Positions 1 to 6,012 of a stretch of DNA of 6,012 nt are shown here, one piece after another (the first letter of the stretch is position 1; each line of letters starts with the position of its first letter). The position numbers and the translations under genes are program-made. Under the pieces are notes generated by a model. The model made no database searches, was not told the DNA's origin, and worked only from the letters and a program-made list of their open reading frames with translations. Source of the DNA: a candidate division WOR-3 bacterium (GTDB lineage Bacteria; Hydrothermota; UBA3072); the NCBI GenBank assembly GCA_039804165.1, contig JBDRZZ010000046.1, positions 1 to 6,012 on the forward strand. The letters are read 5' to 3'.

Positions 1-371
1 ACAAACTCCTTATGACGATTTAATATCTCAGGAGGTAACTTCTTTTCTTTCAAAGTCTTTTCGGTTAGAGCAAATTTTTCTCTTATTTCTCTATCTCTTT
101 CTTTTAGCTCGCTTAATATCGTTTTGAAAGCATCTTTCCTTAACTCATCAGAAAAATCCTTTTCAAGGATTTCTTCTGATTTCTTTAGAACTTCATCAAA
201 ATCTTTATCTTTAAGGGAATTTAAGATTACAGTTAGTTTTTGATTCTGGATTTCTTCTTTAAGTTCTTTTGATTGAGCGTAGGCATCTATTCCGAATGCA
301 AAAGGTAAAAACACAAATAGACTAAACCAGAGAAGAGATTTAAAAATCCTTTTATGTGATATTCTAATCAT
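1..371 (-). CDS. Second transglutaminase-like protein, N-terminal part, cut by the left edge
   Basis: This is the first 123 codons of a paralogue of the gene that starts at 5260; it continues beyond base 1. The ATG at 371-369 overlaps the toroid gene's TGA (370-368) as ATGA, which suggests translational coupling. A GGGAGGG Shine-Dalgarno lies at 379-385. Residues 1-32 form a signal peptide (basic start, hydrophobic core, AYA at 30-32). A charged, probably helical region follows and includes the PPEILNRHKEFVKK stretch. Compared with the other copy it differs at 8 bases, and only residues 64 (Lys instead of Glu) and 83 (Lys instead of Arg) change. By homology the missing part should hold the transglutaminase-like domain. 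The frame is intact as far as it can be seen. Confidence 0.8.
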   Translation of the reverse strand, partial: MIRISHKRIFKSLLWFSLFVFLPFAFGIDAYAQSKELKEEIQNQKLTVILNSLKDKDFDEVLKKSEEILEKDFSDELRKDAFKTILSELKERDREIREKFALTEKTLKEKKLPPEILNRHKEF

Positions 372-1324
372 ATCACAACCCTCCCAAAACTATTAGCCAA
401 ATCTAATAAATGTTTTCTCCCTGTCAAGGGCAATTTGCCTATTTTGGATACCAAAATAATAAGAGCAGTCTCATAAGCATTATTGTTCCAACTCCCATCT
501 GAATCCTGAAGAGAAAGGAGGAAGTTTTTTGTTTTATTTATTGCACTATACCATATTACCCTATAATCTATACCCTCTCTATACCCTATACCCTCTAAAC
601 CATACCCTCCCTGTAGGGCCATCAGGGAAAGTGCACTCTCATATATTGAAGTTGTATCCTTCCCAAAACTACCATTTGTGTTCTGTTGACTAAGAAGCCA
701 GGAAATTCCATTTTTGATTTGGGTGCTTAAATCATATATACCATGGAATCTTTCCAGAGAAATGAGAGTTAATGCGGTTAGATATATATTGGAAATGTTC
801 TCATCATTATATCGCCAGAATCCTGCTGTATCTTGCTCGTCCATTAGGTATCCAATTGACCATCCGATATTTTCATTTACCGAATAATTAGATTCATGCA
901 AAGAAATAAGAGCAAACGCTGTACTCAGTACATCTCTTTTCTCTTTATCAAAAGTAAAACCACCTATAGGAGGTGAATAGTAAGATAATAGAGTATCCTG
1001 CAAAGAAGTTATATTAACGTCGGATGGTGCGAGCGCCTTTATTTTTTGAGACAAATGGCCACTGTTTTTAACTTCTAAGCTATCAAGATAAGTAATACCT
1101 TTAATATATAAGCTATCTGATGGATTTAAAACGCCGAGTGCTTCACAAACAGTAGCAGTTGATACATAAGTGCTTACAGTAGTATCTCCTCCCCATGAAC
1201 CATCAGAATTCTGAGAGACTTTAAGCCATCGAATTCCAGCGTCAATAGCATCGCTAATTTTATTACTGTAAAGATTAAAAGAAAAAACAAGTAATACTGC
1301 TATAAAATTTTTAAATGCTTTCAT
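368..1324 (-). CDS. Secreted alpha/alpha-toroid protein with prenyltransferase/squalene-oxidase repeats
   Basis: A 318-residue protein with a signal peptide at about 1-20. Repeated QW-type motifs mark an alpha/alpha-toroid: WLKVSQNSDGSWG at 33-45, YLMDEQDTAGFW at 159-170, WLLSQQNTNGSFG at 209-221 and FLLSLQDSDGSW at 268-279, each followed by a helix of the type YETALIIL or STAFALISL. This fold is shared by squalene cyclases, protein prenyltransferase beta subunits and thioester domains of alpha-2-macroglobulins. The DxDD acid motif of hopene cyclases and the CxEQ thioester motif are both absent, so a binding or structural role outside the cytoplasm is more likely than catalysis. The start at 1324 is supported by a GAGGGGAG ribosome site about 8 bases upstream. 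It lies 17 bases after the preceding gene's stop and overlaps the next gene by ATGA. Residues about 239-257 are encoded by an AGGGTA-rich repeat. Confidence 0.85.
   Translation of the reverse strand: MKAFKNFIAVLLVFSFNLYSNKISDAIDAGIRWLKVSQNSDGSWGGDTTVSTYVSTATVCEALGVLNPSDSLYIKGITYLDSLEVKNSGHLSQKIKALAPSDVNITSLQDTLLSYYSPPIGGFTFDKEKRDVLSTAFALISLHESNYSVNENIGWSIGYLMDEQDTAGFWRYNDENISNIYLTALTLISLERFHGIYDLSTQIKNGISWLLSQQNTNGSFGKDTTSIYESALSLMALQGGYGLEGIGYREGIDYRVIWYSAINKTKNFLLSLQDSDGSWNNNAYETALIILVSKIGKLPLTGRKHLLDLANSFGRVVI
400..427 (-). promoter_or_regulatory. Possible internal promoter for the second transglutaminase-like gene
   Basis: On the minus strand a perfect TTGACA (427-422) is followed after 16 bases by TAGATT (405-400, four of six matches to TATAAT). 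It sits inside the end of the toroid gene, about 29 bases before the ATG at 371. The same sequence is unchanged in the right-hand repeat copy. This is a pattern match only; no transcript data support it. Confidence 0.35.
557..608 (-). repeat. AGGGTA short repeat inside the toroid gene
   Basis: Five copies of TACCCT (plus strand) lie at 557-562, 571-576, 582-587, 589-594 and 603-608. On the coding strand they give a degenerate GGGTATAG repeat that encodes the Gly/Tyr-rich stretch GYGLEGIGYREGIDYR (240-255) in a loop before the last QW motif. Similar TACCCT words occur in the spacer at 5473-5478 and 5486-5491. Confidence 0.6.
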
Positions 1325-1341: not shown

Positions 1342-2109
1342 TTAACTTTTCTTCCTATCAAAAACAAGATACTTTTCGTCCCATTTCCATTCGGGTTGAA
1401 AGGCTGCTTCGGTTATGATTACGATTTTGTTTTTATTTACTAACTTCTCTATATCTTTTTTTATCTGTTTGGGAATATCTAACTCTGGCAACAATTCTTC
1501 CTTATTATCCTTACTAACCCAAACGAGAGGATATAATAAAGGTTTCTTCGTCGATTTATATTTCATATAATATGCATTAAACCTACTTCTTTGTATAAAA
1601 TTCATACCCGGGAAACCTCTAAATATACTGCACATATATTTTACCTTTGGCGGTTTTTTATCAAAACTCTCTATAACGACATATTTTTCAGGATATTTCC
1701 AACCTGGTTTAAACGCAGCTTCCGAAATTAAAACTCCATCTCCATTTTCGACTATTTTCTTTATTTCTTCCTTTACCGATTCGGGGATATTTGCTGTTTT
1801 GATGATATTTTCGTAGTTAGTTGATGTTACACATAAGAGAGGAGAATCGTATTCTAAAGTGTTTGCCCATTTTGTAGAATATGAATTGTATTTCAATCTT
1901 GCTGCTCCGTCCTTAAAGAAATTCCATTGTTTAAAAGGATCAGATATTGGTTTTCCTTCAAAAATAACTACTTTAAGATATCTTATATATTTTTTAAGAG
2001 AAGCTTTCTCCGTTCCAAAGACCCAATTGAAGGGGTACATAAATAGTACATATAAAAAACAAAGTATTACTATACCTATATACACTATTATAATTCTAAG
2101 AAATTTCAT
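1342..2109 (-). CDS. Membrane-anchored protein with two tandem copies of the transglutaminase-family C-terminal module
   Basis: A 255-residue protein with one N-terminal membrane helix or uncleaved signal anchor (about 5-29); the rest is probably outside the membrane. Residues about 71-150 and 176-252 are repeats of each other: the cores 107-148 and 211-252 align without gaps with 19 identities in 42. Shared features are IP, K..I, the word EAAF, P.WK and EKY. The same pattern appears once in the upstream transglutaminase-like protein (residues about 848-889 of the rejoined protein), so the two genes share a module. The start is supported by AAGGAGA 8 bases before the ATG. The gene begins 34 bases after the upstream stop and ends 17 bases before the toroid start, so it is probably in the same operon. 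I do not recognise it as a named family. Its role is unknown; oligomerising with or capping the transglutaminase-like partner is a guess. Confidence 0.85.
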   Translation of the reverse strand: MKFLRIIIVYIGIVILCFLYVLFMYPFNWVFGTEKASLKKYIRYLKVVIFEGKPISDPFKQWNFFKDGAARLKYNSYSTKWANTLEYDSPLLCVTSTNYENIIKTANIPESVKEEIKKIVENGDGVLISEAAFKPGWKYPEKYVVIESFDKKPPKVKYMCSIFRGFPGMNFIQRSRFNAYYMKYKSTKKPLLYPLVWVSKDNKEELLPELDIPKQIKKDIEKLVNKNKIVIITEAAFQPEWKWDEKYLVFDRKKS

Positions 2110-2134: not shown

Positions 2135-2156
2135 CTCCACTCCTCAAGGGGTGGAG
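2135..2156 (-). other. Hairpin overlapping the stop codon of the transglutaminase-like gene
   Basis: A 9-bp stem (one G-T pair) with a four-base loop runs from 2135 to 2156. It includes the TGA at 2146-2144 and the codons for the last residues PSTP. No T-run follows on the minus strand and a good ribosome site for the next gene lies just downstream. An intercistronic hairpin (mRNA processing, translational tuning or an inserted palindromic repeat) fits better than a terminator. Confidence 0.6.
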
Positions 2157-3733
2157 GGTTGCCTTTCTTCTTCAAGTAAATCCAACAATTTTTGAATCAT
2201 TTCACCTATACACCAGTAAATATTTTGTGGGTACTCATAAGGAGGTGGACTCCCCGGAATGGCAGCTGGAAGAGCGCAAATATGCTGCAATATTAAAGGA
2301 CCATATAAGAGGAAAAAATTTTTAATCATAGGCCAATACCAAAGAATAAAATCTTTCCACAATTCTTCAAATGGGCCTACAATGTAATAAGCTATTGCCC
2401 AAAAAACACCAAAAAAATCTATCGCTTCAGCTATAACTCCTATAATAACTCCCAAAAACTCCACCAACAGTAATCCCAAACACACAGCTCCAGCTGCTAC
2501 ACATATCCAAAGGAACACATATCCAACCCACCAGAGAAAATAAATTATCCCTCCACCAATACCCTCCACCATATAAGCCCCTTCTCCAGTTTCAGGGTCC
2601 ATTGCAATATACCCTATACCTTCCCAACCATTATAAGTAATATTGGAACGGGGAATGATTACTTCCATACCTCTATCAACTACACACTGAATCGCCGATT
2701 TTACTTCCTTCGATATCTGTAGAAGTGGTAATATTTGAGAAATATTGGCTGAATTAATTGTATATATCGGGATTTGTCTCTCATTCGCTATTGATAATAT
2801 CCTTGTGGCTGATAAGGCTTTTGCATTTTTTAAACTGAATACCTGATCCAGCACCCTCGCCTCCATCTCCGAACCCATTATTCCTGATGCTATATTGTAT
2901 GATTTCTTTCTGTTGCTATCGCCATCTTTCCCGAAGACCGCCTCCATATCCCTATCCACATCTATTTTGAATCCATTCGCCGAAATCGCGTAAGGGAATC
3001 CAAGAATAGAAGTTACTTCCACTGAAAGAAATGCTATTGCCTCTGAAGGAACTCTCTGATGAAATACATCCGTTTTTCTTGCAAATAATTCATTATAGGT
3101 ATCAAGCTGATAATAATACGAAAGAGAAGTGAGATTCAATAGCTCTCCTACTATATCATAAGAAGTCAATAAAGAAATGTTTTGAGTTTCCATTTGCTCT
3201 TTTACTTCCTTGTATCTATCTATCCTTTTTCTCATCACCTCGTTTGGTATCCTGGAAATATCAAAAGCGATTCCATACATCGAACCAACTATCGCAGGAT
3301 TTTCTACTTCCTCTCTAAACCCTGCTGGAGAATGAAATATCATCCTGTATGTCTGTTCCTTTCCCATACCGATTGATGAACCTGTAGCTACTGCTTGATT
3401 CTCTATTACTATTTGGGGTTTCATCTTTATTAAATAAGCAGATATCGCTGATGGGATATTTGTAGTATCTGTCAAGGTATCGGGGGCTTGAGATAATAAC
3501 AACTTTTCATCATTGGAACTGGCTGGAGTATATGCAAGCAATATCCTCTTACCTACTATTCCTATGGTAGGAAAAGTATAAGATATATCACTTAAAATAT
3601 TCCTTTCGTCCATCACTTCTATAGTTATCTTATACCTGAATTCATCAGGAATTTCAGAATACTTTCCTTTTTTTTCGTGACATCGTAAGGAAGAACAGGA
3701 GCGAAACCACCGCTTACTTTCGGTTTTATCCAT
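2144..3733 (-). CDS. Transglutaminase-like protein, C-terminal fragment (third frame)
   Basis: A 529-codon open frame. Its first 21 codons (from the ATG at 3733) are an out-of-frame reading of the upstream fragment. The genuine sequence starts at about residue 22, KGKYSEIPDEFRYKITIEV, which continues PYDVTKK of the previous fragment. Residues 318-383 hold a module with PIYTIN, ISKEVKSAI, the hydrophobic strand MEVIIP, NGWEGIGYIAMDP and then ETGEGAYM; from memory this is the usual C-terminal signature of this transglutaminase-like family. Residues about 394-485 are strongly hydrophobic (several possible membrane helices, rich in Trp, Phe and Gly), followed by a Pro-rich stretch and a Glu-rich end. 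The C-terminus is thus likely to be in a membrane. No independent ribosome site is evident before the ATG at 3733, so expression on its own is doubtful. Confidence 0.75.
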   Translation of the reverse strand: MDKTESKRWFRSCSSLRCHEKKGKYSEIPDEFRYKITIEVMDERNILSDISYTFPTIGIVGKRILLAYTPASSNDEKLLLSQAPDTLTDTTNIPSAISAYLIKMKPQIVIENQAVATGSSIGMGKEQTYRMIFHSPAGFREEVENPAIVGSMYGIAFDISRIPNEVMRKRIDRYKEVKEQMETQNISLLTSYDIVGELLNLTSLSYYYQLDTYNELFARKTDVFHQRVPSEAIAFLSVEVTSILGFPYAISANGFKIDVDRDMEAVFGKDGDSNRKKSYNIASGIMGSEMEARVLDQVFSLKNAKALSATRILSIANERQIPIYTINSANISQILPLLQISKEVKSAIQCVVDRGMEVIIPRSNITYNGWEGIGYIAMDPETGEGAYMVEGIGGGIIYFLWWVGYVFLWICVAAGAVCLGLLLVEFLGVIIGVIAEAIDFFGVFWAIAYYIVGPFEELWKDFILWYWPMIKNFFLLYGPLILQHICALPAAIPGSPPPYEYPQNIYWCIGEMIQKLLDLLEEERQPSTP

Positions 3734-4509
3734 TTGAAAGGAAATACTTCGCCAATGGTAGCACTATCTCCTAAATTTTCCTCTATCCAGTTATTTGTTC
3801 TCGTTCCATAATCCTCCAATGCCTGATTTATTATCGTTGTGTCCATTCCTGTAACCGCTCCCGTTATGGTGTCAATGTTTGCTGAAGCGCGAATTTCTCC
3901 CATTAGACTATCCACATCTAAAGGAACTTCCTCTTCCAATTTCACCGGGTTATTATATTCAAGTATCTTATAACTGGGGTCCATCGGTATCCAGGTCAAA
4001 TCCTTACTCACGGGGTTTTTTCTTCCTAAATCTATATCATAATTAAGCTGTGCCTCAACCCAGCAATGTTCCAGGCGTAACCCATAAGGTTTTCCATTTA
4101 CAACTAACATCCTCGCAGGAACTCCCATTGTTGCAAAAATGTTTCCTGCAACCCAGGGGTCTTTAACGCCTAGCCACCCCATTGCTTTATCTATAGGTAC
4201 GATTATCTCTCCATATACATATCTTGATTTTATTCCTGAAGTTCGTAATAGGGAAATAAGAAGTGAGGCTAAATCGAAGTCATTTCCGGCTTTCTCAAAC
4301 AATGTCTCCTGTGCACCCTTAAGACTCCCAAAATAAGGCTCATATTTGAAGTTATTTCTTATATACTCATATATCTCTACAGGCTTATACTCCAGTTCTT
4401 CTGCAAGTTCCTGTATTTCTTCCGTAAATTGCACTTCCATTGTCTCCTGTAAAATATCCATCCCCTCCCTCGGAAACAAGCAAAGGTAACATCGAAACAT
4501 CACCTGCAT
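3625..4509 (-). CDS. Transglutaminase-like domain fragment (second frame)
   Basis: A 294-codon open frame. The first 16 codons are an out-of-frame reading of the upstream fragment; family-like sequence begins at Met17 (4461), MDILQETMEVQ. If translated on its own, that Met is the better start because GAGG lies just upstream. The core holds IYEYIRNNFKYEPYFGSLKG (47-66), GNDFDLASLLISLLRTSG (75-92), an EHCWVEA strand (147-153) and WIPMDPSYK (173-181). These are the three active-site blocks of transglutaminase-like proteins. His148 and Asp177 are present, but where most members have GxCxxxA this one has GNDFDLA, so no catalytic Cys. The last 14 codons after PYDVTKKK are out of frame. Cross-linking or protease activity is unlikely; ligand binding or a scaffold role is more plausible. 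Confidence 0.78.
   Translation of the reverse strand: MQVMFRCYLCLFPREGMDILQETMEVQFTEEIQELAEELEYKPVEIYEYIRNNFKYEPYFGSLKGAQETLFEKAGNDFDLASLLISLLRTSGIKSRYVYGEIIVPIDKAMGWLGVKDPWVAGNIFATMGVPARMLVVNGKPYGLRLEHCWVEAQLNYDIDLGRKNPVSKDLTWIPMDPSYKILEYNNPVKLEEEVPLDVDSLMGEIRASANIDTITGAVTGMDTTIINQALEDYGTRTNNWIEENLGDSATIGEVFPFKWIKPKVSGGFAPVLPYDVTKKKESILKFLMNSGIR
3667..3675 (-). other. A8 run with dnaX-type slippery heptamer at a -1 frame switch
   Basis: On the minus strand the second-frame codons read ACG AAA AAA AAG GAA, so A AAA AAG is in the frame needed for -1 slippage, as in the dnaX frameshift site. A -1 slip joins exactly the two halves of the family-like protein (PYDVTKKK then GKYSEIPD). A short inverted repeat (CCTGA/TCAGG, 3635-3649) lies downstream; no clear upstream stimulatory Shine-Dalgarno is seen. 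A missing A in a sequenced A9 run would look the same. Confidence 0.5.
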
Positions 4510-5260
4510 AGGCGAAGAGCTCCTTACTCAGGGTATAGTTATGAGGGTTTAGGTTATAGTAATTGGAATCAGAGTTGTTGGGACAAATTTTATTTTCTTC
4601 AAATTTAAAATTTTCAATTTCTAATTTACAACCTTCAATTAAGCCGCTACTACCCTGAAGCATCGCTCCTCGCTTCTCTGGCCTATACTCCTCTGTCTGT
4701 ATTTTCTTTACAGGCATTGAACGATGAGGTAATTTATTAGGGTCAAATTCGGATATTCTCTTCTTATAAGTATTCTTCTCGATAAAACCTTTCAACCCCT
4801 TCCTTGAAGAACTTCTGGTTAGCCAGTTTGAGTTTATATACGAATTAACTTTCCCGTCAAATTCTTTAAATCTCTCCTCATACTTCTTTACAAACTCCTT
4901 ATGACGATTTAATATCTCAGGAGGTAACTTCTTTTCTTTCAAAGTCTTTTCGGTTAGAGCAAATTTTTCTCTTATTTCTCTATCTCTTTCTTTTAGCTCG
5001 CTTAATATCGTCCTGAAGGCGTCTTTCCTTAACTCATCAGAAAAATCCTTTTCAAGGATTTCTTCTGATTCCTTTAGAACTTCATCAAAATCTTTATCTT
5101 TAAGGGAATTTAAGATTACAGTTAGTTTTTGATTCTGGATTTCTTCTTTAAGTTCTTTTGATTGAGCGTAGGCATCTATTCCGAATGCAAAAGGCAAAAA
5201 AACAAATAGACTGAACCAGAGAAGAGATTTAAAAATCCTTTTATGTGATATTCTAATCAT
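4385..5260 (-). CDS. Transglutaminase-like protein, N-terminal fragment with signal peptide (first frame)
   Basis: A 291-codon open frame starting at the ATG 5260-5258, with GGGAGGG about 8 bases upstream. Residues 1-32 are a signal peptide ending AYA. Residues about 33-145 are Lys/Glu-rich and likely helical or coiled. The RHKEFVKKYEERFKEF (119-134) and EFDPNKLPHRS (171-181) stretches are, from memory, recurrent in the N-terminal part of RHS-neighbouring transglutaminase-like proteins. The family-like sequence runs through ELFAYAGDVSMLPLLVSEGG (247-266); the last 25 codons are an out-of-frame reading of the next fragment. The first 371 bases of the gene are duplicated at the left edge of the window. 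The leader is the tail of a truncated toroid gene that holds a promoter-like sequence. Confidence 0.8.
   Translation of the reverse strand: MIRISHKRIFKSLLWFSLFVFLPFAFGIDAYAQSKELKEEIQNQKLTVILNSLKDKDFDEVLKESEEILEKDFSDELRKDAFRTILSELKERDREIREKFALTEKTLKEKKLPPEILNRHKEFVKKYEERFKEFDGKVNSYINSNWLTRSSSRKGLKGFIEKNTYKKRISEFDPNKLPHRSMPVKKIQTEEYRPEKRGAMLQGSSGLIEGCKLEIENFKFEENKICPNNSDSNYYNLNPHNYTLSKELFAYAGDVSMLPLLVSEGGDGYFTGDNGSAIYGRNTGTCRRTGV
4462..4465 (-). other. +1 frame switch at a G4 run
   Basis: The minus strand reads GAG GGA GGG G ATG GAT. Dropping one G gives SEGG then MDILQE and rejoins the N-terminal fragment to the transglutaminase-like core. The same GAGGGAGGGG could act as a ribosome site for the ATG at 4461, so re-initiation is a weaker alternative. 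Confidence 0.5.
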
Positions 5261-5333
5261 ATCACAACCCTCCCAAAACTATTAGCCAAATCTAATAAAT
5301 GTTTTCTCCCTGTCAAGGGCAATTTGCCTATTT
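5257..5333 (-). pseudogene. Remnant of a toroid gene (last 24 codons)
   Basis: The minus strand encodes IGKLPLTGRKHLLDLANSFG, RVVI and the TGA stop, identical to residues 295-318 of the toroid protein at 368-1324. Two codons upstream of the remnant is an in-frame TAA and there is no start, so it is not translated as a protein. It keeps the ATGA overlap with the downstream gene and now serves as its leader, with ribosome site and promoter-like sequence. Confidence 0.9.
5289..5316 (-). promoter_or_regulatory. Possible promoter for the transglutaminase-like operon
   Basis: TTGACA (5316-5311), 16 bases, TAGATT (5294-5289), about 29 bases before the ATG at 5260. It is identical to the element at 400-427. 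Here it is the only well-placed promoter-like sequence between the truncated toroid tail and the start codon. Pattern match only. Confidence 0.4.
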
Positions 5334-5492: not shown

Positions 5493-5616
5493 TTATAAAC
5501 TCCTCCTACTTATGAAAACCTTCAACTTAAATATCCCAAACCCTATTAAAAAACATATTCCAGATATAAAAACAAATGTCCAAATATAACTTGAAAAAAA
5601 GGCCAGGTCAAAAAAA
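5493..5616 (-). other. Frame-switched C-terminal tail of the right-hand gene
   Basis: After a -1 shift at the T7 run the frame reads HIFFDLAFFSSYIWTFVFIS, then GICFLIGFGIFKLKVFISRR, SL and TAA at 5495-5493. That is a typical single membrane helix followed by a basic tail, and more protein-like than the short tail in the original frame. The 0-frame codons ATT TTT TTG contain T TTT TTG, a slip-prone heptamer. An indel in sequencing would give the same picture. Confidence 0.45.
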
Positions 5617-6012
5617 TATGCCTGAAATATTCAACTATCTTTAATCCAATATTTTTAAATGTTAACCCTGTAACAAAAATGGTGTGGATCGCTTTGTATA
5701 TTGGATTCCTTGTTGGTTTCACAAGAAAAATAATCCCATTATCTACTAACTTTAACTCCGGTTTATCCACCCATGGTAATCTATAATAAACTGTTATGCT
5801 ATCTATAAATCTATCTTTACCAATATTGTCTTCAATCTTCTTATCTAACAAACGGCAAGCCCTTGGAAAAATTTCTTCCGCAGAACAGAAAAGTTGATGT
5901 ATATCACTATGTATTATATTTTTAAAAAAGAAAAACTTTACTTTTACTCTCTCGTAAGTGTACCCTGAAAACCTATCACTAATCCACCAGACAAACTGAC
6001 CACCACTTCCAT
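5546..6012 (-). CDS. Unrecognised membrane-associated protein, C-terminal part, cut by the right edge
   Basis: The frame is open from the right edge (first full codon 6010-6008) to a TAA at 5546, about 154 residues, with no stop in between. It should be read as a 5'-truncated gene rather than one starting at the TTG at 5851. Visible stretches include GSGGQFVWWISDRFSGYTYE near the edge and VYYRLPWVDKPELKLVDNG further on. The last 20 or so residues look like an out-of-frame reading: a -1 shift in the T7 run at 5610-5616 opens a tail to 5493 with a clean membrane helix. I do not recognise the family. It is separated from the cassette by the repeat-bearing spacer and may be a different operon. 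Confidence 0.6.
   Translation of the reverse strand, partial: GSGGQFVWWISDRFSGYTYERVKVKFFFFKNIIHSDIHQLFCSAEEIFPRACRLLDKKIEDNIGKDRFIDSITVYYRLPWVDKPELKLVDNGIIFLVKPTRNPIYKAIHTIFVTGLTFKNIGLKIVEYFRHIFLTWPFFQVIFGHLFLYLEYVF

What the first reader, a model, noticed from the sequence alone, without database searches (positions are those of the whole stretch)
1342..2109. A stand-alone gene built from two copies of the transglutaminase family's C-terminal module
Residues 107-148 and 211-252 are 19/42 identical, and both resemble residues 848-889 of the rejoined neighbour (P-x-x-x-[IV] start, IP/IS-x-x-[VI]-K-x-x-I helix, hydrophobic strand, W, then Y strand). The module has been copied out of, or into, the larger protein and tandemly duplicated behind a membrane anchor. 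Such sharing between operon partners suggests like-with-like assembly or competition for one ligand.
Basis: partly seen in the sequence, partly recalled or inferred. Interest (0 to 1): 0.6.

Follow-up and report, generated by a model that had tools for sequence, protein, structure and literature searches.

The report
Doubled pre-tip domain in partner gene
A small membrane-anchored protein in an uncultured WOR-3 bacterium carries two copies of a domain that, in its toxin-like neighbour, sits just before the variable tip; the family link is real and old, and the gene occupies the place where such systems usually keep the partner (immunity-type) gene.

Summary
Protein 1342-2109(-) has an N-terminal membrane helix and two ~60-residue copies of one domain. 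The same domain lies near the C-terminus of the neighbouring transglutaminase (TG) protein. A profile built only from TG copies finds the small protein at E=9e-13, the reverse search works, profile-profile probability is 98%, and the predicted helix/strand order agrees. The domain is not strictly C-terminal: it ends the TG trunk and precedes a variable tip, and in RHS relatives it precedes DUF6531/RHS. The doublet is not a local copy: the four stand-alone domains form their own clade (97/97), and grouping them with the neighbour's domain is rejected (p=0.004). The TG lacks its catalytic Cys and belongs near the 'inactive transglutaminase' polymorphic toxins. WOR-3 loci repeat the order TG(variable tip) - unrelated partner gene - toroid protein, and the doublet gene fills the partner slot. 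Best guess (~0.4): a membrane-anchored partner, probably immunity-like, for a membrane-active tip. Immunity was not tested. The doublet also occurs in a second WOR-3 genome in an NHL membrane protein, with no TG gene visible on its short contig, so a general adaptor role stays open.

The parts
1342..2109 (-). Stand-alone double-module protein (P0001, 255 aa)
   Evidence: Intact ORF with ATG and AAGGAG ribosome site; 34 bp after the TG gene, 17 bp before the toroid gene
2038..2094 (-). N-terminal membrane helix (residues 6-24, mean hydropathy 3.05)
1666..1842 (-). Module 1 of P0001 (residues ~90-148)
   Evidence: profile match; HMM of TG modules
1351..1530 (-). Module 2 of P0001 (residues ~194-253)
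   Evidence: profile match; HMM of TG modules
1531..1662 (-). Linker between modules (residues 150-193), basic, not alignable with the linker of the relative L004
   Evidence: linker score z = 0.1
2591..2773 (-). The same module in the TG neighbour, at the end of its trunk
   Evidence: AlphaFold2 order E-H-H-E-E-E
2147..2548 (-). Variable C-terminal tip of the TG neighbour: 134 aa, first ~60 residues strongly hydrophobic
   Evidence: no similarity to the tips at other loci
3625..4509 (-). TG ORF with Transglut_core domain; Cys of the catalytic triad replaced by Asp (GNDFD)
   Evidence: PF01841 E = 3e-17; alignment
4385..5260 (-). TG gene N-terminal ORF with signal-peptide-like start
2144..3733 (-). 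TG gene C-terminal ORF (contains module and tip)
368..1324 (-). Alpha-alpha toroid protein (squalene-cyclase/TED-like), third gene of the cluster
   Evidence: PF13243 E = 2.3e-12; 47% identical to the C33 copy and 30% to the G070 copy
3..371 (-). Start of a second TG gene, cut by the contig end; overlaps the toroid stop by 4 bp
4890..5333 (.). 444-bp direct repeat (98.2%) of 1-444, spanning the toroid-end/TG-start junction

Best explanation
P0001 is the dedicated partner of the TG protein just upstream of it. The TG protein is an RHS-less relative of polymorphic toxins with an inactive transglutaminase: exported trunk, pre-tip module, variable tip (here a hydrophobic, probably membrane-inserting one). 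P0001 holds two diverged copies of the pre-tip module at the membrane. Most likely it protects the producer, or manages its own TG protein, by binding either the tip/trunk or whatever the pre-tip module binds. Shown: homology, doublet, anchor, gene order, partner slot, loss of the catalytic Cys, variability of tips and partners between loci. Inferred: that the tip is toxic, that P0001 neutralises or escorts it, and that module-module or shared-ligand contact is the means.
For: Homology. Partner slot: TG - partner - toroid in the window, in contig C33 and in G070 (TG - 391 aa - TG cassette - 395 aa - toroid), gene gaps of -4 to 55 bp. Partners at different loci are mutually unrelated by sequence apart from the paralogous pair within G070, and so are the tips, as in toxin-immunity pairs; most of the partner genes start with a membrane helix or a signal-like segment. 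TG triad Cys replaced by Asp, Asp and Ala in three proteins, matching the inactive transglutaminases of PMC3482391 section 19. The TG trunk finds RHS proteins on plasmids, and the module lies just before DUF6531 in Methylomonas. Hydrophobic tip plus membrane-anchored partner fits the ionophore/immunity pairs described in PMC11630599. P0001 is more AT-rich (30.6% GC) than its neighbours (35-38%). The doublet occurs in 2 of 147 WOR-3 genomes, both among the 4 with TG modules (hypergeometric p = 0.0006; within the class 2 of 10, p = 0.02).
Against: In the other genome (G008) the doublet is part of an 833-aa membrane/NHL protein, and no TG gene is seen on that 4.4-kb contig. Topology of P0001 is ambiguous: positive charges lie on both sides of the helix, and the L004 doublet looks cytoplasmic, which would keep it from an exported protein. 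No immunity family was matched. The TG gene appears frameshifted twice, so the pair may be decayed or misassembled. Immunity proteins made from the toxin's own trunk domain are not something I found described.
Confidence: 0.4

Rival explanations
1. P0001 is an anchor or assembly factor: its two modules bind the same ligand as the TG pre-tip module (or the module itself) and hold or present the TG protein at the membrane. It serves export or display, not immunity.
For: Same domain in both proteins, adjacency and operon-like spacing, co-occurrence of doublet and TG in the same genomes.
Against: Other TG loci have unrelated partners in that slot, so a general assembly role would need a different protein each time. 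Module surfaces have diverged: the GYIxxDPxTG and GG-rich motif of the TG copies is missing in the stand-alone copies.
Confidence: 0.25
2. The doublet is a general small adaptor or sensor domain used in WOR-3 membrane proteins. Its place beside the TG gene is incidental, and the common ancestry with TG modules is remote and functionally irrelevant.
For: L004 joins the same doublet to a multi-helix membrane region and an NHL propeller without a TG gene nearby; separate clade.
Against: The doublet is found only in genomes that also have TG modules, 2 of 2; tight spacing inside the TG - partner - toroid order. Only two examples, so weak either way.
Confidence: 0.22
3. P0001 is a remnant of a displaced TG cassette (orphan module fragments), without a function of its own.
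For: The locus is recombining: 444-bp junction repeat at 98%, orphan TG cassette in G070, TG gene itself interrupted.
Against: Intact ORF, own ribosome site, membrane helix, doublet of a distinct old clade shared with another family of the class.
Confidence: 0.08

Closest known systems
Inactive transglutaminase polymorphic toxins (Zhang et al. 2012, PMC3482391, section 19)
   Same: Exported TG-fold trunk with lost catalytic residues, variable C-terminal regions, downstream partner genes; trunk and module recovered in RHS proteins of Methylomonas and Caballeronia plasmids
   Different: No RHS array in WOR-3; ~270 residues between signal segment and TG core; the tip follows the module directly; one partner gene is itself built from the module
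CDI ionophore toxins and CdiI immunity proteins (PMC11630599)
   Same: Hydrophobic tip followed by a membrane-associated partner gene
   Different: No sequence relation tested or seen; CdiI there are 72-100-residue two-helix hairpins, P0001 is 255 aa with one helix and a doublet of soluble domains
L004, 833-aa membrane/NHL protein of a WOR-3 genome of the same class (G008)
   Same: Same doublet, 34% identity over both modules, E = 4e-26
   Different: Multi-helix N-terminus and NHL propeller; no TG gene on its short contig; linker unrelated

Membership tests
Inactive-transglutaminase polymorphic toxin (TG neighbour) | Transglutaminase-fold core | tested here: met
   PF01841 E = 3e-17
Inactive-transglutaminase polymorphic toxin (TG neighbour) | One or more of the catalytic C, H, D lost | tested here: met
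   Cys position is Asp in the window and G008, Ala in Paraglaciecola
Inactive-transglutaminase polymorphic toxin (TG neighbour) | TG domain immediately after signal peptide or TM helix | tested here: not met
   Signal-like segment at residues 9-27, but a ~270-residue ORF precedes the TG core
Inactive-transglutaminase polymorphic toxin (TG neighbour) | Array of RHS repeats after the TG domain | tested here: not met
   No RHS hit in the window pieces; RHS is present in Methylomonas relatives. Hence 'relative', not 'member'
Inactive-transglutaminase polymorphic toxin (TG neighbour) | Variable C-terminal domain on a conserved trunk | tested here: met
   Tips mutually unrelated or only weakly alike while modules are 42-55% identical
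Inactive-transglutaminase polymorphic toxin (TG neighbour) | Toxic activity of the tip | not testable with these tools
   Needs expression
Immunity protein (P0001) | Gene directly downstream of the toxin tip, same strand | tested here: met
   34-bp gap
Immunity protein (P0001) | Changes together with the tip between loci | tested here: met
   Partners unrelated between loci; only four loci in WOR-3
Immunity protein (P0001) | Match to a described immunity family | tested here: inconclusive
   No Pfam, NCBIfam or PHROGs family above cut-off; weak PADLOC matches only
Immunity protein (P0001) | Neutralises the cognate tip | not testable with these tools
   Needs co-expression
Module family shared by TG trunk and P0001 | Mutual profile hits | tested here: met
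Module family shared by TG trunk and P0001 | Same predicted fold | tested here: inconclusive
   Same secondary-structure order in all three, but pLDDT 66 and 56 and no PDB match

The most novel reading that the evidence does not exclude
An immunity (or self-recognition) protein made from two diverged copies of the toxin's own pre-tip domain, fixed to the membrane: protection by decoy, occupying the receptor or the module-module contact that the toxin trunk uses.
Probability: 0.22. Interest if true: 0.65.

Novelty: new variant of a known kind. Interest (0 to 1): 0.42.

Why it matters
The TG trunk ends in a conserved domain for which I found no Pfam, NCBIfam, PHROGs or PDB match above cut-off, at the junction where polymorphic proteins exchange tips. 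Finding the same domain, doubled, in a partner gene gives a handle on what the junction does: the doublet is soluble-sized and could be purified and used as bait. If the partner works as a decoy, it would be an immunity strategy aimed at the trunk rather than the toxin tip.

Tried and rejected
Local copying between neighbours: rejected by tree test. Known domain: HP1451_C (E 0.02), PTPase PF25516 (7.5e-4) and PADLOC/PHROGs hits all below cut-off or weak. PDB by sequence: nothing; by fold: best Foldseek E 0.6, best VIA Z 3.8, PCNA-like rows, not meaningful at this model confidence. Partner genes as one family: rejected, pairwise z near 0 except the paralogous pair and one weak pair (z 3.7). Homologous linker between doublets: no signal. 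Genome-contig scans: the first found nothing, the second one WOR-3 contig, so distribution outside WOR-3 is poorly sampled; viral contigs: none; phages: none. Caspase-like nature of the G070/G096/C33 tips is a motif impression (GH...CxS/A) not backed by any library hit.

Full report
Setting. The window is the whole 6012-bp contig C46 of a WOR-3 genome of 1.96 Mb. On the minus strand the order is TG gene (three overlapping ORFs, 5260 to 2144), P0001 (2109-1342), an alpha-alpha toroid protein (1324-368) and the start of a second TG gene (371-3). Gaps are 34, 17 and -4 bp. A 444-bp stretch across the toroid-end/TG-start junction is repeated at both ends of the contig at 98.2% identity.

Observation. 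The two halves of P0001 and the neighbour's segment are homologous. Pairwise scores exceed all 1000 shuffles. The test that matters is non-circular: an HMM from TG modules alone finds P0001 at 8.6e-13, an HMM from stand-alone modules alone finds the TG modules of this genome at 1e-7 to 8e-6 (and those of G070 and G096 at 1e-5 to 3e-4), and profile-profile comparison gives 97.8%. The unit is about 60 residues, with invariant N, K, I, W and Y. AlphaFold2 places strand, helix, helix, strand, strand in the same order in module 1, module 2 and the TG module, but with mean pLDDT of only 56 (P0001) and 66 (TG module). No solved structure matches.

Origin. P0001 has a relative in another WOR-3 family of the same class: L004, 833 aa, a multi-helix membrane region, the same doublet, an NHL propeller and a last helix. 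On a tree of 11 modules the four stand-alone modules form one clade against the seven TG modules (97/97). Forcing the P0001 modules together with the neighbour's module costs 29 log units (AU p = 0.004). With only 64 columns the finer branching is unresolved.

What the module is in the TG protein. It is not the C-terminus. In WOR-3 it is followed by a glycine-rich stretch and then a tip: a 134-aa hydrophobic one in the window, ~200-aa ones in C33, G070 and G096. Tips are unrelated between loci, or only weakly alike. On a Paraglaciecola plasmid a 1044-aa TG protein carries the module before a ~340-aa C-terminal region and is followed by a 284-aa gene. In Methylomonas the module (weak match, 9e-5) lies at 314-369, before DUF6531 at 438-513, and RHS repeats follow in the next ORF. 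So the module ends the trunk. [quoted passage not shown] The WOR-3 proteins fail two of that group's defining features, RHS array and TG directly after the signal segment, so I call them relatives.

The partner slot. Three WOR-3 stretches share the order TG tip, partner, toroid, with an extra TG cassette and second partner in G070. Partners are P0001, a 378-aa protein, and 391/395-aa proteins with a helix at each end; G096 has a 425-aa one after its tip. None resembles P0001. The doublet was found in 2 of 147 WOR-3 genomes, and both are among the four with TG modules (p = 0.0006, or 0.02 within the class). These numbers are small and the genomes are related.

Mechanism. Variable tip plus variable downstream partner is the layout of toxin-immunity pairs, and a hydrophobic tip with a membrane-anchored partner recalls the ionophore pairs of CDI systems (PMC11630599). 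I therefore favour a membrane-anchored partner, probably immunity-like, at about 0.4. That it works through the module (decoy or module-module contact) is a guess suggested by the shared domain. Against it stand the ambiguous topology of P0001, the L004 architecture, and the apparent frameshifts in the TG gene.

Verdict. Real homology, old doublet, interesting slot; function open. New variant of a known kind, interest 0.42.

Noticed in passing
window 3625-4509 / 2144-3733 / 4385-5260: The TG gene is split into three overlapping ORFs by two apparent frameshifts; one overlap holds a run of eight T (about 3668-3675), so sequencing error, slippage or decay are all possible.
   Followed up: no
window 1-444 and 4890-5333: Direct repeat at 98.2% with eight mismatches, covering the toroid 3' end and TG 5' end; a toroid remnant lies upstream of the TG gene. 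Looks like tandem expansion or exchange of a TG-partner-toroid unit.
   Followed up: partly
L014 3-12758 (contig C33 of the same genome): Giant secreted-looking protein of more than 4250 aa starting with a toroid 47% identical to the window's; two stretches (175 and 94 bp) are 88-95% identical at DNA level, suggesting exchange between the two loci.
   Followed up: partly
L023 1-5448 (G070, JAJRUZ010000041.1): Tandem TG tip - 391 aa - TG cassette without TG core (445 aa) - 395 aa - toroid: an orphan cassette arrangement like those of polymorphic toxins.
   Followed up: partly
L023 2819-3469, L038 6462-7280, L014 13967-15037: Tips share GH and CxS/A-like motifs reminiscent of caspase-fold peptidases, but no library supports this.
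   Followed up: partly
L004 670-3171 (G008): 833-aa protein combining a multi-helix membrane region, the module doublet, an NHL propeller and a C-terminal helix; its upstream neighbour is propeller-like (weak WD40/DPPIV_N hits) and its downstream neighbour Yip1-like (weak).
   Followed up: partly
window 5546-6010: Unannotated ORF fragment of 101-154 aa on the minus strand, open at the contig end, without Pfam match.
   Followed up: no
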